DNA of 50,705 nt. Origin: a virus. This document shows, in pieces, positions 974 to 40,518 of this stretch (its first letter is position 1; every line of letters starts with the position of its first letter). Under the pieces are notes generated by a model. That model had not been told where the DNA came from. It saw only the letters and a program-made list of their open reading frames with translations, and did no database searches. The stretch is from the IMG/VR virus record IMGVR_UViG_3300025769_000013, positions 1-50,705 of that record; one strand, 5' to 3'. The translations under genes and the position numbers were made by a program.

Positions 974-1040
974 ACGCTTGCTACAGGAAGCGTGTACAAA
1001 TGTGCTTCAATCCCTGTATTCATGCGGGATGAGGGCCGAT

Positions 1041-8429: not shown

Positions 8430-9092
8430 ATGAGTGAACTGACAGGTGAAGAGTTAAATCAAATCAGAAGACGTAATTTCGGGGAGTATGTGGTGAGTAC
8501 TCCAGGATTAGGCCCCTTCGATGCATTTCGGATGGTAGATGGTGTAGACCAGAACCCGGATATTGCGGACTGGGTGAAGGACATGTTTACCAGCAAGCAG
8601 TTGGGTTTCTTTACTGAAAAGACTCCAGCCAGCGTGGGTAAATATTGGCTCAAGACTAGTGGACCGCCTGTCCTTATGCAGCAAGGCGATTGGTTTGTGA
8701 AGGTCTGCGATGATCCGCTGACCATCAATCGATATCCAGACGCAATTTTCCAAATCATGTTCGGGGCGAAGGAAGTCCTGGCCCCAAATGGAGTGGAAGA
8801 GCCGATGACCCGGGTAATTGAACTCTACTCTCCTTCTGCGGAGGCAGCAACCCTATCTGGAGAGATCGCAGCCTACATGGAAACCTCCTACAAGGACTGG
8901 ATGTCCAAAGCCTACTACCACTACATGGAGATCATCAAGGATATGCTAATCCGTGGTCCAATTCTGGACCGAATTAAGCCCATCCAGGAGTACACGGACA
9001 AACTGGAGGCGAAAGGTGGTCAGATCACTAAGGCAAAATATTTCAAACTTCTGAAGCGGGGCATGCAGATGCTCAATCCAGACGTAAATTGA
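8430..9092 (+). CDS. Hypothetical protein upstream of TerL
   Basis: The 220-residue product is chosen from ATG 8430 because an upstream in-frame ATG at 8313 would read through the tRNA. It is alpha/beta in the first half and mainly helical from about residue 130, with a basic C-terminus. It overlaps TerL as TGATG, so it is likely a packaging or head gene, but I recognise no family. Confidence 0.6.
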   Translation: MSELTGEELNQIRRRNFGEYVVSTPGLGPFDAFRMVDGVDQNPDIADWVKDMFTSKQLGFFTEKTPASVGKYWLKTSGPPVLMQQGDWFVKVCDDPLTINRYPDAIFQIMFGAKEVLAPNGVEEPMTRVIELYSPSAEAATLSGEIAAYMETSYKDWMSKAYYHYMEIIKDMLIRGPILDRIKPIQEYTDKLEAKGGQITKAKYFKLLKRGMQMLNPDVN

Positions 9093-11815
9093 TGGAGCGG
9101 CACGGGTATGCATTTCCTGATGAATGGGATGACCTTCGGATAGAACTATGGTGTCTGGCGAATGCTGAAGATACGCATCTACACTTGAAACACTGTATGA
9201 TGCTTCTCTGGCCTCACCTTTACCAAGGGGAAATTGCTCCAGGTGTACCGAGGTGGAGAGAGGATTTGGAATTGATGACATGGGCGTGGTCTAATTACCG
9301 GACGATGACAGTGATCGGACACGCCAGTGCTGGAAAATGCTTAAAAGTTAATACAGAAGTATTAATGTTTAATGGCGAAAAGAAAAAAGTGCAAGACATA
9401 AAACGAGGAGATTTGCTAATGGGTGATGATTCTACTCCTCGTAAAGTCCAAGGGGTCTGCACTGGTCGAGAGGAAATGTTTAAGATCATTCCCAGCAAAG
9501 GCGATCCCTGGGTTTGCAATCGCAGTCACATTCTCTCTCTCAAAGCATCCTACGTCCCAAAAAAGAACACAGACTTTGAAAAGGGAGATGTTCGTGATGT
9601 GCCTCTGGAAGAGTTTTTGACTTACGGCGAGACTAAGCGACGAGTCTGGAAGCAATATCGGGTCGGAGTGGATTTTCCTAAGCAGAAAGAGCCGCTTTTG
9701 ATCGATCCATATATCCTTGGGGTATGGATTGGTGACGGCACAAAGGGAGAGCTAGAAATCACAAAACCAAAAGGCAAGGTAGTTGATGAGTGGATTAACT
9801 ATTGGTCATCTCGTGGACTATCAGTTTCAGAATACCAAGTAAAAGACCGTTGCAAAAGATGGAGAGCAGTTAACAAAGAAAGGCACGGTGACTATCGTCA
9901 ATTTATTCGAGGACTTGCGACGACTGGTCAAAAGATAATCCCGCAAGAATACCTCCTGGCATCCAGAGAAAGACGCTTAAGATTACTAGCTGGATTGATA
10001 GACACTGATGGGTATGTAGACAAGAATGCTTATGCCATCACCACAAAATGGAAGGGACTTGCTGATCAAATTCTATTTTTGGCAAGATCTTTAGGTTTTG
10101 GGGCAAACCTCACTGAGACTACTGGGAAAATTAAATCACTGGGCTTTGAAGGGACTTACTGGAATGTTCATATTTCCGGTGAGGTGCAAAATATACCTAC
10201 TCTTGCTAAAAAAGCGGAGGGGAAAATATCAAGAGATCCATTACTCCAGGAGATCCGAGCGGAATCATTAGGCGAAGGTACTTACTATGGGTTTGAGATC
10301 GATGGAAATCGGAGGTTCCTACTTGGAGACTTCACCGTCACTCACAATACCCATACGCTGGCCCATATCGCTTACACGCACTACCTTTCTGATGCTGCCA
10401 ACACGATTATTACGCTGACCTCCACTCACCTACCAGGTCTCAAAAAGAGGTTATGGTCAGATATCGTATCCGCTCATAAAACCTCAGTCTTGGGGGAGCT
10501 CATGCATGTAAAGACGTATGACATGACGATGCGTCCAATGGATAATCCAAAAGAGGACAAATATGTCATTGAGGGAATTGCAGTAGACCGTGGCGAAGAG
10601 GCGGTAACCCGGATCCAGGGCAATCACTCCAGGGACCATCGATATGTGATTATTGATGAGGCGGAAGGTACGCACCAGGCGATCTTTGATGCAGCATCCA
10701 ACTTGATGACAGATAACGACTTTCGTTGGGCAATGTTGGCGAACCCCGAGAATGAAAATGGAGAGTTTGGGACCTGGTGTGAACCGACACGCGGTTGGAA
10801 CTCCATTGATGCAGAGCAGGATCTCTACTGGGAGACTGCTAGAGGTGGTGTGTGTGTTCGATTGGACGGGTTAAAATCGGCAAACTTTCGGAATCCTCCA
10901 CCAGAGGGAAAGAAACCATACTTTCCATTCCTGATTGATCAAAATTACGTGGATAGAATCAAAACATCCTACGGTTTTGAATCACCCCGGTGGTGGATTT
11001 TCGTGCGTGGTTGGTTTCCTCCAGCCGGATCAATGGGGACGATCTTTTCTCGGAACATCCTGGCTCAAGCAGTGGAGCCGATTTTCTACAACTACCCACC
11101 TACGCCATGTGCTGCATTGGACCCTGCTTTCGAGGGTGATGATGAATGTATGCTCCAATTTGGAGAGTACGGGGAGGCGAATGGATCCAGGTTTGCGTTC
11201 AATTTTAAGGAAGAGCAGGCAGTAAAGGCGAAAGTTCGGCCCGGAGGTGAACCATTGGACTACGTCATTGCTCATGAAGTTATGAACCAATGTGACGCCA
11301 GGGGTGTAAAGCCGGAAAACTTCATCATGGACACTACTGGTGCTGGCCGGGGCGTTTATGCGATCCTTCGCAAGGAGTGGGGGAAAGTCGAAAAGTGCGA
11401 TTTTTGGGGAAAACCGAGTGATCGACGCCTTCGGGCATTTGATGACATGACCTGTGGGGACCAGTTTGATCGATTTGTTACGGAGCTTTGGTTTTCTTGC
11501 CGAATATTCATGGAATCTGGTTTGATTGGTGGAGTCACAATGGATTTCAAGAAGTTGCGGGAGCAATTATCCGCCCGGAGGTTCGAGATTAAGTCCAAAA
11601 AGGAATCTATCGAGACCAAGAAGGATATGAAAAAACGGTTAGGCTACTCGCCTGACCATGCGGACGCATTTGTACTATTTACTGAGCTCCTGAAGCGTAA
11701 AGGAGCAGTCACCGGTGAGGAAAAACTCCCTGAAAACGAGGATGAATCACAGTGGGACCGAGCTAGGGCCTACAGCGATGTAGCAGAGGAGAGTTTTGCA
11801 CATGGATTTGCATAA
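9092..11815 (+). CDS. terL: Terminase large subunit containing an intein
   Basis: This is the ATP-driven packaging motor and headful or site nuclease. The 907-residue precursor has Walker A GHASAGK at 76-82, split from its Thr (420) by a 337-residue intein (83-419). Walker B VIIDEAEG has D522-E523. The RNase H-like nuclease shows D677 (ALDPAFEGDDE), D747 (FIMDTTGAG) and D858 (HADAF). Spliced TerL would have 570 residues, normal for the family. ATG 9092 overlaps the previous stop; a TTG at 9089 is less likely. The intein must be removed for ATP binding. Confidence 0.93.
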   Translation: MERHGYAFPDEWDDLRIELWCLANAEDTHLHLKHCMMLLWPHLYQGEIAPGVPRWREDLELMTWAWSNYRTMTVIGHASAGKCLKVNTEVLMFNGEKKKVQDIKRGDLLMGDDSTPRKVQGVCTGREEMFKIIPSKGDPWVCNRSHILSLKASYVPKKNTDFEKGDVRDVPLEEFLTYGETKRRVWKQYRVGVDFPKQKEPLLIDPYILGVWIGDGTKGELEITKPKGKVVDEWINYWSSRGLSVSEYQVKDRCKRWRAVNKERHGDYRQFIRGLATTGQKIIPQEYLLASRERRLRLLAGLIDTDGYVDKNAYAITTKWKGLADQILFLARSLGFGANLTETTGKIKSLGFEGTYWNVHISGEVQNIPTLAKKAEGKISRDPLLQEIRAESLGEGTYYGFEIDGNRRFLLGDFTVTHNTHTLAHIAYTHYLSDAANTIITLTSTHLPGLKKRLWSDIVSAHKTSVLGELMHVKTYDMTMRPMDNPKEDKYVIEGIAVDRGEEAVTRIQGNHSRDHRYVIIDEAEGTHQAIFDAASNLMTDNDFRWAMLANPENENGEFGTWCEPTRGWNSIDAEQDLYWETARGGVCVRLDGLKSANFRNPPPEGKKPYFPFLIDQNYVDRIKTSYGFESPRWWIFVRGWFPPAGSMGTIFSRNILAQAVEPIFYNYPPTPCAALDPAFEGDDECMLQFGEYGEANGSRFAFNFKEEQAVKAKVRPGGEPLDYVIAHEVMNQCDARGVKPENFIMDTTGAGRGVYAILRKEWGKVEKCDFWGKPSDRRLRAFDDMTCGDQFDRFVTELWFSCRIFMESGLIGGVTMDFKKLREQLSARRFEIKSKKESIETKKDMKKRLGYSPDHADAFVLFTELLKRKGAVTGEEKLPENEDESQWDRARAYSDVAEESFAHGFA
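9338..10348 (+). mobile_element. Intein with LAGLIDADG (DOD) homing endonuclease in TerL
   Basis: The insertion begins with Cys (CLKVNTEVLMFNG, block A) and ends FLLGDFTVTHN followed by Thr, the standard C-terminal HN plus +1 nucleophile. A dodecapeptide endonuclease is present: LGVWIGDGT (precursor residues 209-217) and LLAGLIDTDG (298-307), each with its acidic catalytic residue. All splicing residues look intact, so it is probably active both in splicing and homing. The site is the most conserved point of TerL, the P-loop K-T bond. Confidence 0.93.
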
Positions 11816-27759: not shown

Positions 27760-29103
27760 ATGGCAGTTTACGCACAAGCACCAGACGCACAACCCAACCC
27801 GGTTGGCACATTCATTAATGCCTTCTCGACTGGGCGTAACCTATTCCAGCAGAAGCAACGTCAAGAGATGGAGATGCAACGTCTTCAGAGAGCGGAGGAA
27901 CGTGCAGTTCGACAAGAGGAAAGGCAGGCAAAGCTTTGGAGTATGCAGATGAACTCGAAAGAGTTGGAGGTCGAGGCATTGGGGCGTCAGGCTGAAGATG
28001 ATATCGCTCGGAGAGATCGTGCCAGTGGAGATTTACCAAGGGCTTTGCAGCAGTTTGAATTGATTGGATCACAGATAGATGCAATGGAGGCGGCGAATGA
28101 AGAGGATGTCCCTGGATATCGGAGTAAGATTGCGACCATGTATGCAAAGCTTGAAGCAATCAAAGGTCGATACAGTCATGTCCAGGGAGATGCTCGGTGG
28201 GCAACTCAATTTGATGATGCCTACTATCAGGTAACCAATAAGCTTTCTCAGAAAGCAGCACCGTTGGAGGCAGTTCTTCCTGGTGCATTCAATAAGTTCC
28301 GAGAAGAGTTTGCATCACTAAAGGGAATTACTGACCTGAATGAGTATGCAGCAAGAGCAGGTGATATTGAAAAACGGTACGCTTACTTTGCTTCAGATCC
28401 CGTCCGTGGCCAGATGTTTGAGTCGATGGTGGATAAAATGGATGAGAATATCAAATCCATGAGAGAGAACCAATTCAAAGCACAGAAAGAGCAGCAAGAG
28501 CTCGAAGGGCTCAAACACTCAAATCAAAAAAAGGAGTTAGAAGTTGAATCTGCGAAGAAGCAGAAGGTTACTGATAAGAACAATGCAGTTAAAAACCAAC
28601 AGAGGTTACTGCAAGAGCGAGATAAGATTAGGCGTTTACGGAATGATATCCAGAATGCTGATTTTGGTGTAGGCGGAACAGGTACTATTATAGAGGCACT
28701 TAAGACAGCTAAAAGGCTCGGCGGAAGAAGTGCTGGTGCATCAATTGCAGACGAAATTGTTTCCGGTGAGTGGTTAAAGAATGTATCTGCTCTAAAGGGT
28801 GCTTTGTCTGATAAAGAAGGTGCAAGACTCGCAATTGCTGGGTTAAAGAGAACTGATGATAAGGCAGTCTGGTTAAGGAAGCTGAATAACCTCATAGCTG
28901 CATTGGATACTGATCGAGCTTTACTAAGTGAACAGGGGATGTGGTATATCGACGAAAAAGGGAAACCTTTTTCATTATCTGAGGGCACTGAGCAGGAAGA
29001 GATCGGCGATAGTGATGTCAATGATCTGCTCGGAGGTGGAGAATATACACCGCCAGAGGAAGAGCCTGATTTCAGTATTTTTGAAGACCCAGAGGGAAAT
29101 TAA
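27760..29103 (+). CDS. Coiled-coil internal virion protein
   Basis: The 447-residue protein is largely alpha-helical, with strong coiled coils at about 25-80 and 245-300 (KEQQELEGLKHSNQKKELEV). A short acidic tail follows. The start ATG 27760 is two bases after the previous stop. With its neighbours it probably forms the internal core delivered with the genome. No enzyme motif is recognised. Confidence 0.55.
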   Translation: MAVYAQAPDAQPNPVGTFINAFSTGRNLFQQKQRQEMEMQRLQRAEERAVRQEERQAKLWSMQMNSKELEVEALGRQAEDDIARRDRASGDLPRALQQFELIGSQIDAMEAANEEDVPGYRSKIATMYAKLEAIKGRYSHVQGDARWATQFDDAYYQVTNKLSQKAAPLEAVLPGAFNKFREEFASLKGITDLNEYAARAGDIEKRYAYFASDPVRGQMFESMVDKMDENIKSMRENQFKAQKEQQELEGLKHSNQKKELEVESAKKQKVTDKNNAVKNQQRLLQERDKIRRLRNDIQNADFGVGGTGTIIEALKTAKRLGGRSAGASIADEIVSGEWLKNVSALKGALSDKEGARLAIAGLKRTDDKAVWLRKLNNLIAALDTDRALLSEQGMWYIDEKGKPFSLSEGTEQEEIGDSDVNDLLGGGEYTPPEEEPDFSIFEDPEGN

Positions 29104-29107
29104 AGCA

Positions 29108-32100
29108 ATGGGATACACAGACACAGAGAAGCAGGAGATTCTAGCAGGGGTTCCTGAGGATGTGAAAAACCGTGCAAGGCAAGGTGATCGTGATGCAATC
29201 GATTTGATTAAAGGGAAAATTTCGGAATGGAAGTCAGTGACGGAATTACCACAGACACAGACTCAAGCTCCAAAAACTCTATCAGATCGATCTCGTGTTA
29301 TTGATCTGGCCAATCAGGATAACTTTAACTGGGATGAGATCTCTGGTCTAATCGATTCTGGTAAGCTTACGGATGAAGTGGTGGAGTTTTTCGCCAGTGA
29401 AGGGTATGGATTGGAGCAGTCCCTTACTGGTGGTCGGATTATCAATATTGGAAAGAAGGGTAACTATATTTCCAGCCCACAAGGGCGGATGCTCAGTAAG
29501 CTGGGAGAGAGTATTTCTTCTGTTGTTACAATACCCTGGCGTGGCCTTGGAGATAATGATCCAACATCCATGTCTAAGGATGATTTCTACAGGTATCTAT
29601 TAAAGCAACCCAAAGATGATTGGGCTCGGACAGGAGTTGAGAAATTAATCCGGAAGCAACTTCAAGAACGGCAACAAGAGGAACAGAAGGCATATGCACT
29701 TCATGGAGAAGATGCGAATGTCGATATGCACGGAAAAGCCGGAGCTTTAAGCCAAAAGAACGAAATCCCAGCACCAACTCCACAGGATTGGTTCCCAGAA
29801 AAGTTTCTGAAATCAGAAGATGGATCATATTCTGCAAACAAGAGTGAATTAAAACGATACAAATCTGTAATCCTGGAGAATGATCCATATGCGGCATCGC
29901 AGGTGGAACAATTGACCGGACGGGCAGTTGCTGACTTTTATTATGCCAAGAAGGAGGAAGACTCCCAGATGCTCGAACGATTAAATCAGCTTCAAGCAGA
30001 AGGAAGGACGCATCTTCATGACCCTGAGGTTTATGATTGGTTTGTCCGCAGGGGTATGGAGAAGACTCAGGACATCACCTTGGGCCAAGCGATTGACGCT
30101 GGTTGGGATATATTAGGACAAGTTTGGCAAGGGTTGGTTGGCTCGGAAGATGGTTCTGGGATTATCAAGGAATTCGGAGATACAGTATTCAAAGACGATG
30201 CTGCTGAGTATCAAGAGTTTGATGAACTGGTTGGAGAGTCATTCCGGGCATTGGGTTCTGACTACCAACTCCTGAGTGAAAATGCAGGCGGATACTTCTT
30301 GGATCTTATTGAAAAGGCGGATGACAAGGATAGTCCTGAAGCTCAGGAGTTGTATCGAAAAGCGAAATCTGAGCGAAATCGTAAGTTCCAGCTCAGGGCA
30401 TTATCAAACCAAGCAGTTTACGCAAGGGCATCCCAGTCATTGGCATTGAGTCAGGGGAAGAATCCCCAGCAGATGCAGAAGAATATTCTAACTGGTACAT
30501 TTACTTTTGATCCGATGAACTTCGTTCCTATGGGAGGTGTATCAAAAAAAGGTGCAGAGGCGACTCTTAGGGCTGGAGTGAATACACTAAATGATGGTGC
30601 ATTGAAGACTGCGAAGATTGCTGCTGACGAAGCATCGAAAGCTATTTCAGATGCACAAAAGGTGTTGATCGATGCAAAGAAAGCGGGGGATGGTGCTGCG
30701 ATCCAATCTGCCAAAAAGACTTATGATGACGCTTTGAAGCAATACGATAATGCTGAGAAGGCGTTAAAGGAGGCATCGACTAAGGTTGATAATATCTACC
30801 AGGAGTTATTGGAAGCAGGCATGCCAAAACTTTCGGGAAAAGCACTGGAGATGATGGGAGCCGCCGGAGAGTGGATCATGAAGAAAGGCGATGAGGCTTT
30901 AGATAATATCGCAGTTAAGATCGCCCCAGGCATGGCAGATGACACAAGACGATTGCTTGAAGGCGGAGTAAAAGTCGGTGTTGCTGCTACGTTAGGAGGG
31001 GCAAGTCTCGGAACTGTAGGTGCAGTCGTCGGAGGCGTATTGTTAGGAAGTCCAGTAGCAAGAGCACTTGCAAGAGATATGCGGTTAATGGGATCACATA
31101 TTGCACTTGGAGCAAGACTTCAGCCTCTACACCGAGCATTGCAAGCGACCACTGATGCAGGAGGAAATGTAATTTCTCCTGCTTCCTTTGGAACAAGAGT
31201 AGCGGCAAGAGGGTACGAGGCGGCATTTCCCTTTGTAGATCCAGTCGCCAGACTCGGAAGTCGAGTTGTTAAAGGAGTTGCCTCCGTGCAAACGGCGGAG
31301 GCGATGGCAATCCAGTCCGCTATCGGTTATTTGGGATCAGGAGGCACTTGGCAAGGTGCAGTGACTGGAGCGACAATGGGTTTTGGCATGGCAGGGTCTT
31401 TTGGTGCTGCTGGAGCACTTACGCCTTTTGGAAGTCAGAAACAGGTCAATCAATTGGCAGCAACGAATGCTAGGCATTACCGTGATATGTTAAAAGGCAC
31501 TCCTACTGGCGACGAGTTTGCAAAGCTACCATTTGAGGATCAGAAAGCAATAGCATGGGCTATGGGCGGTTTCACAGATACCGCACTCAAGATTATCAAT
31601 GACCCAAATGCACCTGCTGGAGCGTATAACCCAGCAAGGAATGAGATCAACATCAATACAGGGCGAAGAGAGTGGACTAAGGAGTTTGCCAGAAATGTAG
31701 CGAAACATGAACACTCTCATTACATCGCAAGGCATGTTGGTGTCCGTGAGAAAATCCTGAAGACTTTGTTGGCGGATGACTTCTCTCTCCAGTCAGGAAT
31801 CTTTGCTAAGAAGGGGAAAGATGGTAAAGCACTGTATAAGCTAGACCGTGATACTATCCGGGAGATCATGCGTAAAAATACGCAAGGTAAGTCTGTCGAT
31901 GAGGTAATGCAGGAACTTGGATTGTCCAGGGAAGCTGTTGAGTCACTTGGTCAGGTGTTGACTGTCGGTGATCGTCGTAGAAATGACGTTTACATTGAAA
32001 CCACTGATGACTTTAAGGACATCACCAATACATATTTGTCAAAACTGGCGGCATCCAACCCCTTTGCCGCCATTGATTTAATCAACAAAGGTGAGAGGTA

Positions 32101-35100
32101 TGTACAGGAGTACATTGCTGAAGAGATTTTTGCAGAACAGGGGGCAGCAGAAATTGCTAACTACACTCCAGCTTATGCGAAAAGCTTTCGACGAGCTGCA
32201 TGGAGAAAAGATTTGGATGCAGCTCTAAGCAACCCCAGGTTCTCAGGCAGGAAAGCAAGTGTGCTGGGGAGAATTGGTGCATTATTTGGATCTGACCAAA
32301 AGATCAACTCTTCTATATTGGGTGCATTTGACTCCATTCCTGAGTTTAAGGAAATATTTGACGGATACAATCACTCCAGGTCAATGAACCGTGACATGCA
32401 ATTGGCCGAATCCAATGCAGACGGGTTAGCACCTTCGGAGATACTTGATCCAAGAGACTGGGATGCGTCAGTCAGCACTCCATCCACTGAGTCCTTGAAG
32501 GCATGGGTCGCCAACGGGATGCTGGATGTAGATCCAAAGACTGGAGTCCCTAAAGGTATTGAAGTTCAGGCAGATGGAAGCTGGAGAGTCCGAGATCCAA
32601 ACCTTATTCGTCAATCTGCGAAAAATGCCGATAAGGCAGCAAAGGAGTTTGGTAGTGAGATAAAGGATTGGCTCGAAGATAACACGCAGCCTCCGAAGTC
32701 TGCCCAAGAGATTAAAGACTCTATCGACAGTCAGGCTCCCCCTCGATCTCAGGCTGAAAAGGATGCTCTGGATGAAGTGAAGAAGAAGATTGATGGAGGG
32801 GTGAAGCAGGATATCGAGAAGGAGATCCGGGTTCAAAAGTCTCAGTCCGTCCAGGCAACCAAGGACTACCTTGATGATGTTAGTCAAATTATCGACGACA
32901 ACATGGCCGATGATGATGTCGTTGCTCCACGGACTACCATTGATGGCCGAACTATTATTGCAGGCAGATACCTTCCTGAAGACCTACTGACACACCTTGA
33001 AAAGTCTGGGAGGTTTAACCCTCATCAATTACAGAACCTCCGCAATTTGAACCAGTATTTGAAGGATGGACTACATGCCACTCCGATTACGGTGATGTAC
33101 CAATCCACGATGCGAGCTGGGAAAGCAAAGCCTATTGCTGCTGCGGAAAAGACTGTCTATGTAACTGGGTTTGAGGTTACTCAGCAAGGAAACTTTATTT
33201 ACCGCATTTGGAACATTGACAAAATCATGACCAATGGGGCTAAGAAGATGAACTCCAAGATTGGTAAACAGCTTTACAATGGTGATATTGGGCAGTTCAA
33301 TCAGGATGTCTACACTTACTTCAATAACTACGCAAAAGGACTTCCTGGAGCTACTGGATTGAGTGCGACCAAGCGAGATTTCATCCGCAAAGCCATTGGT
33401 CTTGCTGACCCTAACACATCCTCTAACTCTGGAAGGACTCCAAACCCATACGCTTGGAATGTCCAGCCGTTAAAAGACGCAAAGGATACAGCGTTAAACT
33501 CCTATAGACTTGATCGCACAAATTGGATTGACCTTGGGAACCCAAGGATGAAGAAACCGCTGGATGCTCCATTGACATCAAGGGAAGGACCAAATCCAGG
33601 TAGTTACCAGCGGATCAGGGAGAATTACCACCCTGGCGACATAGACTACCTTGACGCAGTGGAGTCTGGTGACATGGAGACTGCTCAGAAGATGGTGGAT
33701 GAGGCTGCGAAGAAGGCGGGATGGACTGTATTGGCATGGCATGGCACTACGCAGGGAGCGTTAAAAGGAAACAAGTTTGATCCCAGTAAACAGCAAAGAG
33801 GCTTCATTACTTCCGCAGGGTATTTCACAACAGATAAGCGAGCGGCAGCAGGGTACGCAACCTCTGGAGGGGCGGGACATTACCCAAAAGGCAGCAAAGA
33901 AAGGAAGGCTCTCGAAGGAGGGGAAAGGCCGTACGACCCTTCACTATATAGAGTTTACTTAAAAGGCGACTGGTGGAAGGGTGATATTGATACAGATGCT
34001 CTAGTTGAGGCAGTGAACACTGTAAACAACAAAGGTATTGCCGATGAGTTTGATTTAGAGTGGACCTCGACATGGGATGATAAGGAAGGGTATGCCAGTC
34101 GTACTGACAGTTACCCAGACGTAGTCTTTGATACTCCAGAGGAATGGTTAAGGGACTTTGTCGAGAAAGGTGAGTTTGATTCGTACGTAGGAAACGATAC
34201 GGATGCTATTGGTTCTGAGTCACCTATTGCATTTGTCTTTTCTAATTGGGAAGTTGGTAAAGAATATCTGAATATAACAAAAAAAGATGGAGTTACTTAC
34301 TTTGATAAGGAAACAACCGAAGTTGATGCGTTTTCCGATAATGCAACTACTTATGTCCCCACGAATCCCAACCAGATCAAATCCGCCGACCCCGTGACTT
34401 ATGATGATGCTGGTAGCGTCATTCCGTTGAGTGAGCGATTCAACCCCAAGAGCGACGATATCCGCTATCACCCAGGCACTGACTCCGACTACCTAAAAGC
34501 AGTGGAGTCTGGAGACACTGAGACTGCTCAGAAGATGGTAGACGAGGCTGCGAAGGCTGCGGGGTATAAAGTTGTTTACCATGGGACGACCAAAAAGGGA
34601 TATACCAATATATGGAAGTCAGGAAAACTGAAACCAGATGCAGAACCAGCAGTTTATGTCACCACCGATTCAGAAGGTGGTGGTTATGGAGATGGCACTG
34701 TTCTCCGAATTGGAATTAAAGAAGGTCGATTGGAAATCGATGATGAATTCCCAGGCGGAAGAGAAGATTATCGTGTGGAGGTGGGTTACCAGGGAGAGAT
34801 TCAAATCAAATCCGCCGACCCCGTCACCTACGATGATGCTGGTAACGTCATCCCGCTCTCCGAGCGATTCAACCCGAAGAGTGACGATATTCGCTTCTTC
34901 CCTGGACTCGATGACGAATCCACCAAACGTGCAGGCTTCAACTTCACTGCAGTCTCCGATCGTATTCCTGTCATCCGTGACCTCTACGCGAAGAAAGACT
35001 GGGAAGGACTCAGGGAGATCAATCGATCACTTATCTCCCACGCCCTGGCTGACATCCCCAGAAGTAAACTCAAAGTAACCACAGAGGATATCCATGGTGT

Positions 35101-37933
35101 CTGGATGGGCGAAACTGAGCCCACCATCCGCGTGGAAGTGGAAGCTGCAGATGACGCCACTCTTGATCAGGCTCGTCGCCGCATCAACGCCCTGGGTGCC
35201 ATCTTCGATCAGGATGAGGTCCACGAATTTCAGAGGGCGAGCATGGGTGACAATGATCAATTTGGGGTAACTCCAGGGGCAGTAGATCAATTCCAACCCT
35301 TCGCCCGTATCTTTGTAGAGGATCCATCCAATCCAGGAAGAAAACTTGACTGGAGCGAACTGGAACCTTATCGTGCTCAAACTGATCTTCTAGGAGCCTC
35401 ATTTGATGGAAACGAAATTTTTGTTTACGGAGTTGATGGTAACGAGAAGGTATTTCTCCAAAATGTAAAAAAACTTGAGCAACTGATCCAAAATGGGAAC
35501 CTTAGCCGAATTCAAAAAACTTCTGAATACGGAGCAATCCGTCTTAGGAGGGCCAGCAGGGATATGGGTAGACCCGAAACCCGAGGATACCAAGAAAGTG
35601 CATTTTCGGATGGTCCAGTATCCCAAGAAGGACAACCAGGCGATAAAGGACTCCGCTCCGACCTCGCCCTCCGAGTCTTAAAGTTTACAGGGGGACGCAT
35701 CCTCTCACCCAAAGACGCCAAGCGATCCCTCTTCGTAGGGAAAGATCTCACTCCCGAGCAGGTCGAGCTCCAGATCAAGATCGCTGACCACTACGAACAG
35801 GCTCCAGTCAATGACATGGACCGCCCGATTGTGCAACGTGCTTACCGAGCTCTCCAGAAAGAACTCGTGGATCAATATAAGGCAATCGTCGAAGGGATGG
35901 AGATCATTGGAGTCCCCTGGAGACGCAAAAAGGACGGAGAGTGGATTGAGGGTGATATCTACCCAAGTTCCAAGGAAGCAGTCCGAGATATCCGCCAGAA
36001 CAATCGGATGGAATACCTCCTAACCGACCCCGATGCATTTGGACCCCAGGGAGAAGACTTCTCAGGACACCCACTCCTGGAAGACTCTGGAATTGAAGTC
36101 ATGCTCCAGGATGCGGAAACCGGAGAGCTCCGGCCCTACTCCGCCAATTACAACGATATTCTCCGAGTCGTCCATGACGTCATCGCTCACGGACTTTATA
36201 CTGACCAATTTGGCCCTATCGGAGAAGAGGGAGCCTACCGCACTCACGCCGTTGTCACTCAGGATCCATTTGCCATTTGGACATTGGCTAACGAGACACG
36301 GAATCAAAACTCCTGGGTCAACTACGGTCCCCAGGTACGTGGCAAAGATGGCCAGCTTATCAAGAAAGGTGAACCCGGGTTCCGGTCGATCCCTGAACGC
36401 GAATTTGCTGAACAGAAAGCCATTCTCCTTCCAGTCGATGACCTCCTGACCGGAGTCCCTGAAATCGATCAGAAAGTTGAATCCCTCAGGGCAATGCTTA
36501 CTCCAGAGGAAGCAATGGGCAGTTTGGCTGAATCAAGTCAGGTCCGATACTACCCTGGCACTGATGATGATGCTATTAGGACTTCAAGTAAGAATATTCT
36601 TACGAATCAATCCTCAAAAGGAACAGTAAATGAAATTGGAGAGGCAGCTACAATCTTCAAGGAGTCCTTCATTGAGCAATTTGGTGAAGTAATGACTGCA
36701 AAAGATATGGGGGATGATCAAATAAAGTGGCTGGCAGATCAATTAGTGCAGGAAGCTTTAGTAGAATTCGATAAAGTTGATAATGCAGTAGATTGGTACA
36801 CAACTGCTGTAGAAGGTATGCTTAAGAAAGCTGAAACTTTGTTTCCAGAAATCTCTGATCGTGGAATTGATTATCATACATTCCTAGCTGCAGTTGCGAT
36901 CACATCCCAGAATCTTGCGGTACGCGACAACCTTGCATATGCAGTCGGTCAGTACGAGTACCGCAAGAAGAATGGTGTCTTTAATTACAAGGAAGATGTT
37001 GGAAGTAAGGCTGAAGCGATTCGTGGAAATTTAAAACTTTTCGATAGACTTATCAAAGAGCTAGGAGAAGAGGATTATATTCAATTTACCCAGAGAGATT
37101 TCACAATAAAAGAGTTATCAAGCGACCTATCAGAAGTCTTGGGCAAGAAAGTAAATATAGCAGGCTATCAATCAGACTCAGTAAAAGGATCTGCGGCATT
37201 CGGTCCAAAGATTGGCCAGGGATTTCTCCAGAATCTCTTGGGCAACTATGACCCTGTAACTGTAGATCTCTGGTTGCGAAGAACATTTGGTCGCTTAACT
37301 GGCGATGCCATTCGGAAAGAATTAACTGTCCAGGATATTGGAAGGTTAGTCTTTGCGTTTAAAAATAGAAGTAATCGAGGTAAGTTTAAATTACCGGAAG
37401 ACATCAATCTGCCAGATTACCTGAAAGGACTTCGACTTGAGGGCTCAGTCACTAAAAGAGGTTCTCAGCATAAGATCACTGGATCCGCATTTAGTCGTCT
37501 ATTTAACCCCAAAACAAAAGAAGGTGCTGCAAGACAAGAAGAACTTCGCCAATTAGGAAAAGTATTAAATTCTGCATGGGAAAGCACGTATAAACGGGAG
37601 GTTCCAAAGCTTGGAAAAGAAGAAGTAGGCAAACGAAAGCCATATTGGGCTTATATTGGAAGCACCTTGAACGGGAAATTTAAACCAGTTGACGCCCCAT
37701 CAAACTTGGAACGAAAGGTTATTACACAAGCGTTTGAGATTGTTCGGAAGCGTCTCAAAGAGGAACATGATCTTGACTTCACTAACGCAGATCTTCAAGC
37801 TCTCCTTTGGTATCCAGAAAAGGATATATGGGGTCACCTCACTGGCGAAAGTGCCGACTCCTTAAAGGAAGACTATTCAACTGCAATGGAGGCAATTCTC
37901 AATGAGCGAAACAGAGCCACAGGAACTGAATGA
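29108..37933 (+). CDS. Giant polyvalent protein (2,941 residues) with HExxH and two ADP-ribosyltransferase-like modules
   Basis: This gene is 17% of the genome. N-terminal 490 residues are unassigned. About 495-567 is coiled coil and 620-650 is a Gly-rich hydrophobic segment. H867-E868-H869-S870-H871 is a zincin HExxH. Two ART-PolyVal-like modules follow: one with GDMETAQKMVDEAAKKAG and WHGT (H1545), one with the same helix and YHGT (H1825). Each is closed by QIKSADPVTYDDAG and a DDIR motif. Then come VHDVIAHG (H2356) with ETRNQNSW (E2396), and a C-terminal domain with KIGQGFLQNLLGNYDPVTVD. It is probably injected to modify host targets. Confidence 0.85.
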   Translation: MGYTDTEKQEILAGVPEDVKNRARQGDRDAIDLIKGKISEWKSVTELPQTQTQAPKTLSDRSRVIDLANQDNFNWDEISGLIDSGKLTDEVVEFFASEGYGLEQSLTGGRIINIGKKGNYISSPQGRMLSKLGESISSVVTIPWRGLGDNDPTSMSKDDFYRYLLKQPKDDWARTGVEKLIRKQLQERQQEEQKAYALHGEDANVDMHGKAGALSQKNEIPAPTPQDWFPEKFLKSEDGSYSANKSELKRYKSVILENDPYAASQVEQLTGRAVADFYYAKKEEDSQMLERLNQLQAEGRTHLHDPEVYDWFVRRGMEKTQDITLGQAIDAGWDILGQVWQGLVGSEDGSGIIKEFGDTVFKDDAAEYQEFDELVGESFRALGSDYQLLSENAGGYFLDLIEKADDKDSPEAQELYRKAKSERNRKFQLRALSNQAVYARASQSLALSQGKNPQQMQKNILTGTFTFDPMNFVPMGGVSKKGAEATLRAGVNTLNDGALKTAKIAADEASKAISDAQKVLIDAKKAGDGAAIQSAKKTYDDALKQYDNAEKALKEASTKVDNIYQELLEAGMPKLSGKALEMMGAAGEWIMKKGDEALDNIAVKIAPGMADDTRRLLEGGVKVGVAATLGGASLGTVGAVVGGVLLGSPVARALARDMRLMGSHIALGARLQPLHRALQATTDAGGNVISPASFGTRVAARGYEAAFPFVDPVARLGSRVVKGVASVQTAEAMAIQSAIGYLGSGGTWQGAVTGATMGFGMAGSFGAAGALTPFGSQKQVNQLAATNARHYRDMLKGTPTGDEFAKLPFEDQKAIAWAMGGFTDTALKIINDPNAPAGAYNPARNEININTGRREWTKEFARNVAKHEHSHYIARHVGVREKILKTLLADDFSLQSGIFAKKGKDGKALYKLDRDTIREIMRKNTQGKSVDEVMQELGLSREAVESLGQVLTVGDRRRNDVYIETTDDFKDITNTYLSKLAASNPFAAIDLINKGERYVQEYIAEEIFAEQGAAEIANYTPAYAKSFRRAAWRKDLDAALSNPRFSGRKASVLGRIGALFGSDQKINSSILGAFDSIPEFKEIFDGYNHSRSMNRDMQLAESNADGLAPSEILDPRDWDASVSTPSTESLKAWVANGMLDVDPKTGVPKGIEVQADGSWRVRDPNLIRQSAKNADKAAKEFGSEIKDWLEDNTQPPKSAQEIKDSIDSQAPPRSQAEKDALDEVKKKIDGGVKQDIEKEIRVQKSQSVQATKDYLDDVSQIIDDNMADDDVVAPRTTIDGRTIIAGRYLPEDLLTHLEKSGRFNPHQLQNLRNLNQYLKDGLHATPITVMYQSTMRAGKAKPIAAAEKTVYVTGFEVTQQGNFIYRIWNIDKIMTNGAKKMNSKIGKQLYNGDIGQFNQDVYTYFNNYAKGLPGATGLSATKRDFIRKAIGLADPNTSSNSGRTPNPYAWNVQPLKDAKDTALNSYRLDRTNWIDLGNPRMKKPLDAPLTSREGPNPGSYQRIRENYHPGDIDYLDAVESGDMETAQKMVDEAAKKAGWTVLAWHGTTQGALKGNKFDPSKQQRGFITSAGYFTTDKRAAAGYATSGGAGHYPKGSKERKALEGGERPYDPSLYRVYLKGDWWKGDIDTDALVEAVNTVNNKGIADEFDLEWTSTWDDKEGYASRTDSYPDVVFDTPEEWLRDFVEKGEFDSYVGNDTDAIGSESPIAFVFSNWEVGKEYLNITKKDGVTYFDKETTEVDAFSDNATTYVPTNPNQIKSADPVTYDDAGSVIPLSERFNPKSDDIRYHPGTDSDYLKAVESGDTETAQKMVDEAAKAAGYKVVYHGTTKKGYTNIWKSGKLKPDAEPAVYVTTDSEGGGYGDGTVLRIGIKEGRLEIDDEFPGGREDYRVEVGYQGEIQIKSADPVTYDDAGNVIPLSERFNPKSDDIRFFPGLDDESTKRAGFNFTAVSDRIPVIRDLYAKKDWEGLREINRSLISHALADIPRSKLKVTTEDIHGVWMGETEPTIRVEVEAADDATLDQARRRINALGAIFDQDEVHEFQRASMGDNDQFGVTPGAVDQFQPFARIFVEDPSNPGRKLDWSELEPYRAQTDLLGASFDGNEIFVYGVDGNEKVFLQNVKKLEQLIQNGNLSRIQKTSEYGAIRLRRASRDMGRPETRGYQESAFSDGPVSQEGQPGDKGLRSDLALRVLKFTGGRILSPKDAKRSLFVGKDLTPEQVELQIKIADHYEQAPVNDMDRPIVQRAYRALQKELVDQYKAIVEGMEIIGVPWRRKKDGEWIEGDIYPSSKEAVRDIRQNNRMEYLLTDPDAFGPQGEDFSGHPLLEDSGIEVMLQDAETGELRPYSANYNDILRVVHDVIAHGLYTDQFGPIGEEGAYRTHAVVTQDPFAIWTLANETRNQNSWVNYGPQVRGKDGQLIKKGEPGFRSIPEREFAEQKAILLPVDDLLTGVPEIDQKVESLRAMLTPEEAMGSLAESSQVRYYPGTDDDAIRTSSKNILTNQSSKGTVNEIGEAATIFKESFIEQFGEVMTAKDMGDDQIKWLADQLVQEALVEFDKVDNAVDWYTTAVEGMLKKAETLFPEISDRGIDYHTFLAAVAITSQNLAVRDNLAYAVGQYEYRKKNGVFNYKEDVGSKAEAIRGNLKLFDRLIKELGEEDYIQFTQRDFTIKELSSDLSEVLGKKVNIAGYQSDSVKGSAAFGPKIGQGFLQNLLGNYDPVTVDLWLRRTFGRLTGDAIRKELTVQDIGRLVFAFKNRSNRGKFKLPEDINLPDYLKGLRLEGSVTKRGSQHKITGSAFSRLFNPKTKEGAARQEELRQLGKVLNSAWESTYKREVPKLGKEEVGKRKPYWAYIGSTLNGKFKPVDAPSNLERKVITQAFEIVRKRLKEEHDLDFTNADLQALLWYPEKDIWGHLTGESADSLKEDYSTAMEAILNERNRATGTE
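33644..33724 (+). repeat. ART module entry repeat, copy 1
   Basis: This stretch encodes DYLDAVESGDMETAQKMVDE and matches 34487-34567 with only scattered substitutions. It marks the start of the first ADP-ribosyltransferase-like module. Confidence 0.8.
34376..34463 (+). repeat. Module-end repeat, copy 1
   Basis: This stretch encodes IKSADPVTYDDAG followed by VIPLSERFNPKSDDIR, and matches 34805-34892 closely, with mostly synonymous differences. It closes the first ART-like module. Confidence 0.8.
34487..34567 (+). repeat. ART module entry repeat, copy 2
   Basis: It encodes DYLKAVESGDTETAQKMVDE and is the second copy of 33644-33724, opening the shorter second ART-like module. Confidence 0.8.
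34805..34892 (+). repeat. Module-end repeat, copy 2
   Basis: It is the second copy of 34376-34463 and closes the second ART-like module. Together the four repeats show that the two modules arose by duplication or recombination within the gene. Confidence 0.8.
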
Positions 37934-38491: not shown

Positions 38492-39133
38492 TTACGCCGC
38501 CTGTTTGAGGACACGGGCAACGGTGGTGCCGTGCCAGGTGCCACCCTTTGGAGAAGGTACACCCTCGCCATTAAGGATCTCAGCAATCCCACGAATGGAG
38601 ACCTTCTCTTCACGGAGTCCAACAATCTTGGAAATGGTTTCCTGGTCATCGTAGGGTTTCTGACCACCACAGCGACCAGTCTGGGCCTTTACGTGAGCAC
38701 GGGCAGAAGCCAGACGGGCAACAAGCTGACTTTTCTGGAACTCTGCCACTGCTCCGAGGACCTGGCGGATCAGGGTGCGGGTGGAGTCCCCTTCGATGTT
38801 GGTGAGTTCCACACCACTGGTGTCAAATACGGGAATGCCAGCATCTCTGAATTGGGCAAGGATGACCTCCCCTACCAGTAAATCCCGTGCGATACGGTCA
38901 CTGGACTCCACCAGGATGGTGACGCCTTCCTCCACGCTCGCAATAAGGTCAGAGAGACCCTGGCGAGAAAATCCATCAGTGGTTCCACTTACACCTTCAT
39001 CACTGAAGGTCTTAACAATCTTGTATCCATTCGCTTTTGCGAAGGCACGAATGTTTTCTTCCTGACGGGTTAATCCGTTCCCATCGATCTGCCCGATGGA
39101 GGAAACTCTTAAATAGGAAAATGCGATTTTCAT
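38492..39133 (-). CDS. Serine recombinase (resolvase/invertase family)
   Basis: The 213-residue protein has the resolvase catalytic domain: YLRVSS with nucleophile Ser11 (or 12), GLTRQEENIRAFAKANGY, SDEGVSGTTDGFSRQGL, and ESSDRIARDLL carrying catalytic Arg residues. A C-terminal helix-turn-helix (VSIRGIAEILNGEGVPSPKG) binds DNA. Size is that of small resolvases or invertases rather than large serine integrases. ATG 39133 is chosen because the conserved domain begins there. Substrate could be a phage inversion or multimer site near 39186. Confidence 0.9.
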   Translation of the reverse strand: MKIAFSYLRVSSIGQIDGNGLTRQEENIRAFAKANGYKIVKTFSDEGVSGTTDGFSRQGLSDLIASVEEGVTILVESSDRIARDLLVGEVILAQFRDAGIPVFDTSGVELTNIEGDSTRTLIRQVLGAVAEFQKSQLVARLASARAHVKAQTGRCGGQKPYDDQETISKIVGLREEKVSIRGIAEILNGEGVPSPKGGTWHGTTVARVLKQAA

Positions 39134-39185
39134 GTACACGATAATCAGTAAGTTATGTGTACAGATCAACCTAAAAAACAGCATT

Positions 39186-39461
39186 GGGTTACTTTTTGGA
39201 GTAACCCGACCCTACTTATCCCTTTGATAGAAATGGATATCTTTGGTTTCCGGAGCCGAAAATCTGGGTTCGAGTCCCGGCGGGAGCACCAAGTCACTAA
39301 TAGAGCGGGAAACCGCTTAAATAAAGGGATCAAGAAGGAGATAGTTGACGAATCGGGTTACTTTCAACAGGGTCAAGAGAGTCAAAAAGTACAAGAAAAA
39401 GTAACCCAAAAAGTAACCCAAGGGCATTTTTTGAGGGTTGGGTTACTTAATTTAGTAACCC
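39186..39461. promoter_or_regulatory. Seven GGGTTACT octamers around the attachment core (arm-type sites or operators)
   Basis: GGGTTACT occurs at 39186, 39355 and 39440, and its complement AGTAACCC at 39200, 39400, 39412 and 39454. The outermost pairs, 39186-39207 and 39440-39461, are inverted repeats of identical geometry (8-6-8). Two copies lie left and five right of the tRNA-like core. That is the architecture of integrase arm sites, though a regulator that controls both recombinase genes would bind the same way. The last copy lies seven bases before the integrase ATG. Confidence 0.8.
39217..39291 (+). other. attP: attP-like core: 3' part of tRNA-Arg(CCG)
   Basis: From the D-arm onward a tRNA can be read: D-stem GATA/TATC, anticodon stem TTGGT/GCCGA with loop TTCCGGA and anticodon CCG (39250-39252). 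A 4-base variable loop follows, then T-arm CTGGG-TTCGAGT-CCCGG, acceptor CGGGAGC, A, and CCA (39289-39291). The 5' acceptor strand (TATCCCT) pairs only in its middle, so this is not an intact gene. A tRNA 3' end beside a tyrosine integrase is the classic attP core that restores the host tRNA on integration. Confidence 0.82.
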
Positions 39462-39468
39462 AAATTCT

Positions 39469-40518
39469 ATGACCAAAAAAATAAAAATTTACAGACTCCT
39501 TGATCGCTCGAAACAAAAACTTGGCAAGAAATGTTTCGGAGTTCGGGTCAAAGTGGATGGGGCAAAGCCATTCGCCAAATTCTTTTACACACAACTAGAA
39601 AGAGAAACGTGGGTTGATGAATGGAAGATTGAACGCGAAGAAGGCGTCTTTGAAGTTGTATCAAGCAAAGGCAATACAACCACACAAAGTCGTTCGCTCC
39701 ACTGGGCTATTGATGAGTATTTGTCCTATGGAGAGAAAAAAGGCTGGAGGAGTCACACGATTCGCACCAGAAAGCATCGTTTGGGGGAATTAGGAAAGTT
39801 CTTTGGCGATGTAGGGATGAAGACCATTGAGCGGAAAGATGTCATCAAATTCATTGAGAAGTCAGCAGCCACCAATGTTCTCCGTAAGGCCTGGTGCAGT
39901 GACACAGTCTCCTTCTTTAATTGGTGTGGAAATGAAGACCAGGGGCGGACTTGGTTACCACCATACAAGTTTTCCAAGCTTCAATGGACCCGACTCGCCG
40001 AGGATGAGACTGGAGTTGGGATACTATATCCTGATGAAGCCGAGGATATACTAAATGGCATTTTACCAAAATACCGTGCAGGGATGGCGTTGGCTCTATT
40101 TGCCGGAATTCGCCCAATGGGGGAACTGGATCGTTTACGCTGGGATGATATTCACTTTCGCAGGCAACGTATCATTATTGAAGGGAAAGTATCAAAGACT
40201 CGGAGACGCCGGGTCCTATCAGACCTTCCTGAAAATCTATGGTCTTGGCTTGAAGCCTATAAAAAAGAAAAGGGTCCAGTGATCCATAGTTATTCCGGTT
40301 TCACCCAGGCCCGATACCGGGCTTGTAAGCGTCTCGGTATTAAATATCCACCAGATGGAGCCCGACACTCCTTTGCGAGTTATGGATACTGGCGTGGTGA
40401 AGAATGGTGCCGGAGGACGATGGGGCATACTGCGACCTCCGATGTCTTTCACCGGGTCTACGTGGATGCAGGTCCTAGTCAGGCTGAGTCAGAGGAATAC
40501 TTTGGTATTCTGCCTTAG
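39469..40518 (+). CDS. int: Tyrosine integrase
   Basis: The 349-residue protein has an N-terminal arm-binding-like part, a core-binding SAM-like domain (about 75-165) and a catalytic domain. Arg215 lies in FAGIRPMGELDRLRWDD; a candidate Lys is in the GKVSKTRRRRV hairpin. ARHSFASY carries Arg299, with Asp instead of the usual first His of HxxR. MGHTATSD provides His320, and VYVD the nucleophile Tyr331. It recombines attP with the host tRNA site. Its 3' end overlaps the convergent gene 40475-40885 by 44 bases. Confidence 0.93.
   Translation: MTKKIKIYRLLDRSKQKLGKKCFGVRVKVDGAKPFAKFFYTQLERETWVDEWKIEREEGVFEVVSSKGNTTTQSRSLHWAIDEYLSYGEKKGWRSHTIRTRKHRLGELGKFFGDVGMKTIERKDVIKFIEKSAATNVLRKAWCSDTVSFFNWCGNEDQGRTWLPPYKFSKLQWTRLAEDETGVGILYPDEAEDILNGILPKYRAGMALALFAGIRPMGELDRLRWDDIHFRRQRIIIEGKVSKTRRRRVLSDLPENLWSWLEAYKKEKGPVIHSYSGFTQARYRACKRLGIKYPPDGARHSFASYGYWRGEEWCRRTMGHTATSDVFHRVYVDAGPSQAESEEYFGILP

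What the first reader, a model, noticed from the sequence alone, without database searches (positions are those of the whole stretch)
39186..39461. attP built from a tRNA-Arg(CCG) 3' part with seven octamer arm sites
The tRNA-like core (39217-39291) has a canonical anticodon arm, T-arm and CCA, but a degenerate 5' acceptor. GGGTTACT and its complement occur seven times around it, with two identical 8-6-8 inverted pairs at the outer edges. Tyrosine integrases use tRNA 3' ends as cores and short arm repeats. The octamer's pairing geometry is unusual and may double as an operator for both divergent recombinases.
Basis: partly seen in the sequence, partly recalled or inferred. Interest (0 to 1): 0.75.

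Follow-up and report, generated by a model that had tools for sequence, protein, structure and literature searches.

The report
Phage docking site copied from tRNA
This is the spot where a phage of verrucomicrobial (Opitutales-type) bacteria very probably inserts itself into a host arginine-tRNA gene, carrying a copy of the gene's second half plus repeated binding sites for its own integrase; the arrangement is a well-known kind, but a sister phage with a switched target makes it a neat natural experiment.

Summary
GGGTTACT occurs seven times in 39186-39461 (0.8 expected in the whole window), with two 8-6-8 inverted pairs at the edges, around a tRNA-Arg(CCG) 3' half. The reading as a tyrosine-integrase attP is supported. 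A tyrosine integrase starts 8 nt after the last octamer. Two sister contigs (integrase 74% identical) keep the layout, but the core is tRNA-Arg(CCU) and the intact octamers all change to GAGTTAC(C/T). A scan of ~85,000 species genomes for both cores gave five loci, all Opitutales/Opitutae, all CCU. The sister core matches one of them exactly over 54 bp. No held genome has the exact CCG core (longest exact run 30 nt), so the window's own host is unsampled. In-silico junctions rebuild a full tRNA-Arg(CCG). Distant integrases in Opitutales sit directly behind tRNA genes with short repeats before their start codons. This is a new member of a known kind. Integrase binding and the operator idea are untested. 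One loose end: an 18-bp sequence 21 nt behind the tRNA end (39313-39330) recurs 20 times in 13 of 372 Opitutales genomes (reversed control 0), often just behind tRNA 3' ends.

The parts
39469..40518 (+). tyrosine integrase (349 aa, P0001), shares its upstream region with attP
   Evidence: PF00589 3.2e-6, phrog_1 integrase 2.7e-20
39243..39291 (+). attP core: anticodon arm (CCG) to CCA end of a tRNA-Arg
39248..39254 (+). anticodon loop TTCCGGA, presumed 7-bp crossover (overlap) region
   Evidence: inference: identity of the sister core with its partner tRNA starts on the 5' side of this loop
39186..39207 (.). left (P) arm: octamer pair 8-6-8, GGGTTACT/AGTAACCC
   Evidence: spacing kept in L003/L004
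39355..39362 (+). single octamer GGGTTACT, right arm (degenerate in the sister)
39400..39407 (-). octamer, right arm
39412..39419 (-). octamer, right arm, 12 nt from the previous one
39440..39461 (.). right (P') arm: octamer pair 8-6-8, ends just before the integrase ATG
39304..39317 (+). small inverted repeat AGCGG-GAAA-CCGCT (TGCGG-CATC-CCGCA in L003)
39313..39330 (+). recurrent 18-bp sequence CCGCTTAAATAAAGGGAT, role unknown
38492..39133 (-). divergent short serine recombinase (213 aa, P0002), also next to attP in the sister phage
   Evidence: PF00239 1.6e-26, PF07508 2.3e-6; 71-72% identical homologue in L108/L109
39133..39163 (.). inverted repeat TGTACAC-N17-GTGTACA at the serine recombinase start, possible site of that recombinase
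   Evidence: only exact match in the window; similar in L003

Best explanation
39186-39461 is the attP of a temperate phage of an Opitutales-type verrucomicrobium. The 349-aa tyrosine integrase encoded at 39469-40518 binds the GGGTTACT sites as arm-type sites (inferred) and recombines the tRNA-derived core with the host tRNA-Arg(CCG) gene, probably within the anticodon loop (inferred). Integration cuts the host gene, but the phage half (anticodon loop to CCA) makes it whole again (shown in silico), leaving the integrase gene directly downstream of, and in line with, the rebuilt tRNA gene. The right-arm sites cover the region where an integrase promoter would be expected, so autoregulation is plausible (inferred).
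For: Adjacent tyrosine integrase. Seven octamers around the core. Sister contigs L003/L004 (integrase 74% identical) keep core position, both 8-6-8 pairs and their 14-nt spacing while the core becomes tRNA-Arg(CCU); the four octamers still intact there all carry the same G-to-A change (GAGTTACC/T), and the distance between the fifth and sixth sites changes from 28 to 18 nt, about one helical turn. Genome scan for both cores: 5 loci, 5 of 5 Opitutales/Opitutae, all CCU; L012 shares 54 bp exactly with the sister attP. Opitutales tRNA-Arg(CCG) genes share runs of up to 30 nt with the window core. Host 5' half + phage half = tRNA-Arg(ccg) for 3 of 3 CCG genes tried; the opposite junction gives no tRNA (1 tried). 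Of 6 distant-integrase loci inspected (out of 18 rows), 3 have a whole tRNA gene just upstream in line (Phe, Phe, Thr), 2 a tRNA-Thr 5' half, 1 none; other repeats precede the integrase in L088 (GGGTGAC x4), L089 (TGTCAAA x4) and weakly L090 (GCCACCA x2). In MAG OFTM35 the intact tRNA-Arg(CCU) gene is followed by another tyrosine integrase and a second contig holds a displaced 3' half followed by a stretch 95% identical over 347 bp to the flank of the first.
Against: No held genome carries the exact CCG core (0 hits), and no prophage form was found: the core occurs in viral contigs only in a contig of the same phage, and the closest integrases among 384 class-level and 372 order-level genomes are distant. 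No known excisionase was recognised among the small neighbouring ORFs scanned. The structure prediction of the integrase failed (mean pLDDT 38), so an arm-binding N-terminal domain is not shown. Only two independent attP sequences of this type (window/L002 and L003/L004) are available. Most contigs sharing an octamer pair have no integrase nearby, so the pair alone is not diagnostic.
Confidence: 0.93

Rival explanations
1. The octamers are mainly an operator for a repressor or for the divergent serine and tyrosine recombinase genes, and the tRNA piece is incidental.
For: They fill the 335-nt gap between two divergent genes and form palindromes; KplE1 shows integrase autoregulation at an att site that overlaps the promoter (PMC2951348).
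Against: They lie on both sides of a tRNA 3' half whose position relative to them is conserved while the tRNA type changes; no sigma-70-like promoter was found (0, against 0.7 by chance). An operator role in addition to the attP role is not excluded and is likelier than this rival.
Confidence: 0.04
2. The core is a phage tRNA gene or its decayed remnant, not an att site.
For: ARAGORN calls a tRNA-Arg(cct) over the same place in L003 and L004.
Against: No tRNA is found in the window; the 5' half is missing; the match to host tRNA starts at the anticodon arm, as attP cores do; the core is replaced by another tRNA-Arg while the flanks stay.
Confidence: 0.02
3. The divergent serine recombinase is the integrase and the intergenic region is its att site.
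For: Serine recombinase with its own inverted repeat at 39133-39163; phrog_95 is labelled integrase.
Against: It is only 213 aa and matches profile positions 87-310 of 651 of phrog_95 and 3-51 of 102 of PF07508, and is equally short in the sister; a tRNA 3' core with flanking short repeats fits a tyrosine integrase (PMC4383910).
Confidence: 0.03

Closest known systems
tRNA-targeting tyrosine-integrase attP with anticodon-loop crossover (class A of Islander, PMC4383910; lambda-type arm sites)
   Same: tRNA 3' half restores the target, integrase downstream in the same orientation, arm-type repeats on both sides of the core
   Different: seven copies of one octamer incl. two 8-6-8 inverted pairs; Opitutales host; a short serine recombinase divergent from the integrase
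KplE1 IntS and the STI-type tRNA-integrase arrangement (PMC2951348)
   Same: after integration the tRNA precedes the integrase in line and the att site would overlap the integrase control region
   Different: autoregulation not tested here
Mycobacteriophage systems with tRNA-dependent lysogeny (PMC10865867)
   Same: lambda-like integrase, tRNA attB, pairs of putative arm sites around the core
   Different: here the core is long enough to rebuild the tRNA and the phage carries no tRNA gene

Membership tests
tRNA-targeting tyrosine-integrase attP | tyrosine recombinase gene next to the site | tested here: met
   PF00589, phrog_1; R215, K243, R299, H320, Y331 invariant in 4 aligned integrases (assignment as catalytic residues recalled, and D296 stands where a His is usual)
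tRNA-targeting tyrosine-integrase attP | core identical to the 3' part of a host tRNA gene | tested here: inconclusive
   sister phage: 54 bp exact; window: longest run 30 nt, no exact host
tRNA-targeting tyrosine-integrase attP | integration restores a whole tRNA gene | tested here: met
   in silico, 3 of 3 CCG junctions and 1 of 1 CCU junction; opposite junction none
tRNA-targeting tyrosine-integrase attP | repeated arm-type sites on both sides of the core | tested here: met
   2 on the left, 5 on the right, conserved pairs in the sister
tRNA-targeting tyrosine-integrase attP | N-terminal arm-binding domain of the integrase | tested here: inconclusive
   model too poor; PDB profile search reaches lambda Int only weakly and outside the N-terminal domain (E 0.07-0.2)
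tRNA-targeting tyrosine-integrase attP | prophage with attL/attR at the tRNA | tested here: inconclusive
   none found for this phage, whose host appears to be unsampled; distant relatives do sit at tRNA genes
tRNA-targeting tyrosine-integrase attP | integrase binds the octamers and recombines | not testable with these tools
   needs protein
tRNA-dependent lysogeny (PMC10865867) | short core that breaks the tRNA plus a phage tRNA gene | tested here: not met
   no phage tRNA; core rebuilds the tRNA
large serine integrase system | long serine recombinase with complete C-terminal domains | tested here: not met
   213 aa, partial profile coverage

The most novel reading that the evidence does not exclude
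The 18-bp sequence CCGC(A/T)TAAA(C/T)AAA(A/G)GGAT just behind the tRNA end is a hitherto unnamed element shared by mobile DNA that docks at tRNA 3' ends in Opitutales (and beyond), perhaps a terminator-loop or protein site that lets the element insert behind different tRNAs; together with the octamer set it would form a portable module in which only the tRNA core is swapped to change target.
Probability: 0.2. Interest if true: 0.55.

Novelty: new member of a known kind. Interest (0 to 1): 0.37.

Why it matters
It gives a concrete host prediction (Opitutales) for phages known only from metagenomes and a pair of sister phages whose integrases, arm sites and tRNA cores changed together, between tRNA-Arg(CCG) and tRNA-Arg(CCU). 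Such pairs allow a direct test of which integrase residues follow arm sites and which follow the core. It also warns that tRNA finders call a false phage tRNA at such attP sites (L003, L004).

Tried and rejected
Related-locus search with the integrase alignment on viral contigs chose poor patterns and found only the same three contigs. tblastn in phage and plasmid collections: one distant hit, Akkermansia phage Chantilly, 24.5% identity, and none; DNA search in phages: none. Octamer-pair scans gave 10 and 67 contig stretches; of 74 new loci, 4 have an integrase-like match anywhere and 2 of these lie within 1.5 kb of the pair, so the pair is not a marker. Rfam at a lax threshold: four weak hits, none reaching its gathering score; not pursued. 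The 10-mer CCGCWTAAAY alone is not enriched in six genomes; only the longer form is. ORF lists around 13 fetched copies of the 18-bp sequence gave no common neighbour gene; that output was cut, so I relied. The structure prediction was too poor to use, so no fold search was run. Ideas rejected: phage tRNA gene, serine integrase, tRNA-dependent lysogeny (see rivals and membership tests). Literature searches; seen: abstract plus one section of PMC2951348, passages of PMC4383910 and PMC10865867, search listings only for the rest; PMC100330 (Williams 2002) is not held and is known here only from PMC4383910's reference list.

Full report
The window is a 50,705-base virus record without an attached host. 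Terminase, primase and helicase, Sak4-like annealing protein, a short serine recombinase and a tyrosine integrase identify it as a phage ('temperate' is inferred from the integrase). The finding lies in the 335-nt gap between the serine recombinase (38492-39133, minus) and the tyrosine integrase (39469-40518, plus).

What is there. GGGTTACT occurs seven times in 39186-39461 and once elsewhere, against 0.8 expected for the whole window (further controls). The tRNA-like core is the 3' part of a tRNA-Arg(CCG): anticodon arm 39243-39259, T-arm 39264-39280, acceptor strand and CCA to 39291. No whole tRNA is present. The outer octamers form two inverted pairs with a 6-nt gap.

Relatives. Only three viral contigs carry a close integrase: one from the same phage (L002, 100%) and two sister contigs (L003, L004; 74%). 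All have the divergent serine recombinase too (71-72% in the sisters). The alignment shows the same layout, with a tRNA-Arg(CCU) core in the sisters. Four octamers remain intact there, all as GAGTTAC(C/T); the two pairs keep their 14-nt spacing; the other three sites are degenerate. The distance between the fifth and sixth sites is 28 nt in the window and 18 nt in the sisters. A shared change in all intact repeats, with kept spacing, is what sites for one protein would show. This rests on two independent attP sequences only.

Host. The exact 52-nt CCG core is in no genome of the 84,980-species collection. A degenerate 44-mer covering both cores gave five loci, all Opitutales or Opitutae, all of the CCU type (ARAGORN finds a whole tRNA-Arg(cct) in 4 of 5). 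L012, an uncultured Opitutae MAG, shares 54 bp without mismatch with the sister attP, from the 5' side of the anticodon stem to just past CCA. For the window, 113 of 372 genomes of that order gave a match at E 1e-7 or better; tRNA-Arg(CCG) genes of two of them (L042, L043) share runs of 30 and 29 nt with the core (41 loci compared). Joining the 5' half of three CCG genes to the phage half gives a tRNA-Arg(ccg) in 3 of 3; the opposite junction gives none. The phage host is thus probably an unsampled relative; an exact attB for this phage was not found.

Behaviour of related integrases. Among 372 genomes, 17 had an integrase match at E 1e-18 or better; in the class-wide set 14 of 384 at 1e-20. 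I fetched six loci. In three a whole tRNA gene stands just upstream of and in line with the integrase (tRNA-Phe, tRNA-Phe, tRNA-Thr), in two a tRNA-Thr 5' half, in one none. Repeats of other sequence precede the integrase in L088 (GGGTGAC four times) and L089 (TGTCAAA four times), and weakly in L090 (GCCACCA twice). In MAG OFTM35 the tRNA-Arg(CCU) gene itself is followed by another tyrosine integrase, and a second contig holds a displaced 3' half whose flank is 95% identical over 347 bp to that of the first. So tRNA genes, tRNA-Arg(CCU) included, are integrase targets in Opitutales.

Mechanism. Shown: layout, repeats, conservation, partner tRNA for the sister, restoration in silico. Inferred: binding of the octamers by the integrase, crossover in the anticodon loop, autoregulation. 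Roughly half of the tRNA islands in Islander use an anticodon-centred crossover (2083, against 1836 at the T-stem side), and integrases have switched targets often (passages of PMC4383910), so the CCG/CCU switch fits known behaviour. Autoregulated integrases next to tRNA genes are described for KplE1 (abstract and one section of PMC2951348). The integrase model was too poor to show an arm-binding domain. I give an additional operator role about one chance in three; nothing here tests it.

Loose end. Twenty-one nt behind the CCA lies CCGCTTAAATAAAGGGAT (39313-39330). The degenerate form occurs 20 times in 13 of 372 Opitutales genomes, the reversed pattern never. The pattern was drawn up after seeing the window, L003 and L090, so the L090/L091 sites (L115, L116) are not independent, and G500 (6 sites) and G187 (3 sites) supply nine of the twenty. 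Six of the twenty lie 11-19 nt behind a whole tRNA gene, one behind a tRNA 3' fragment, one abuts a tRNA-Ser 3' half and two follow a tRNA-Thr half; the other ten are elsewhere, some inside coding sequence (the tRNA fragments and coding contexts were read by eye). Four have an integrase-like gene in the fetched locus (L115, L116; L117, L129). In viral contigs 13 stretches matched, three of them this phage and its sisters. Its role is unknown.

Verdict.

Noticed in passing
window 39313-39330; loci L110-L129: 18-bp sequence CCGC(A/T)TAAA(C/T)AAA(A/G)GGAT recurs in 13 of 372 Opitutales genomes (20 sites, reversed control 0), ten of them at tRNA 3' flanks or tRNA parts, several in terminator-like hairpin loops.
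   Followed up: partly
window 39133-39163: Inverted repeat TGTACAC-N17-GTGTACA at the start of the serine recombinase gene, similar in the sister phage; possibly that enzyme's own site.
   Followed up: partly
L003 4760-4833, L004 2252-2325: ARAGORN calls a tRNA-Arg(cct) that is really the attP core; a likely false tRNA annotation in such phages.
   Followed up: yes
window 9089-11815: Terminase large subunit with an inserted intein-like stretch (Hom_end_hint, Hom_end, LAGLIDADG_3).
   Followed up: no
window 39469-40518, residue 296: Asp stands three residues before the conserved Arg of box II where tyrosine recombinases usually have His (recalled); the same in L088-L090, L092, L093, while several other Opitutales integrases have Asn.
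   Followed up: partly
window 28928-37933: A single open frame of 3001 aa, the largest of the phage.
   Followed up: no
window 1010-1027: Second, weaker copy of the 18-bp sequence (2 mismatches, minus strand) near the left end of the contig.
   Followed up: no
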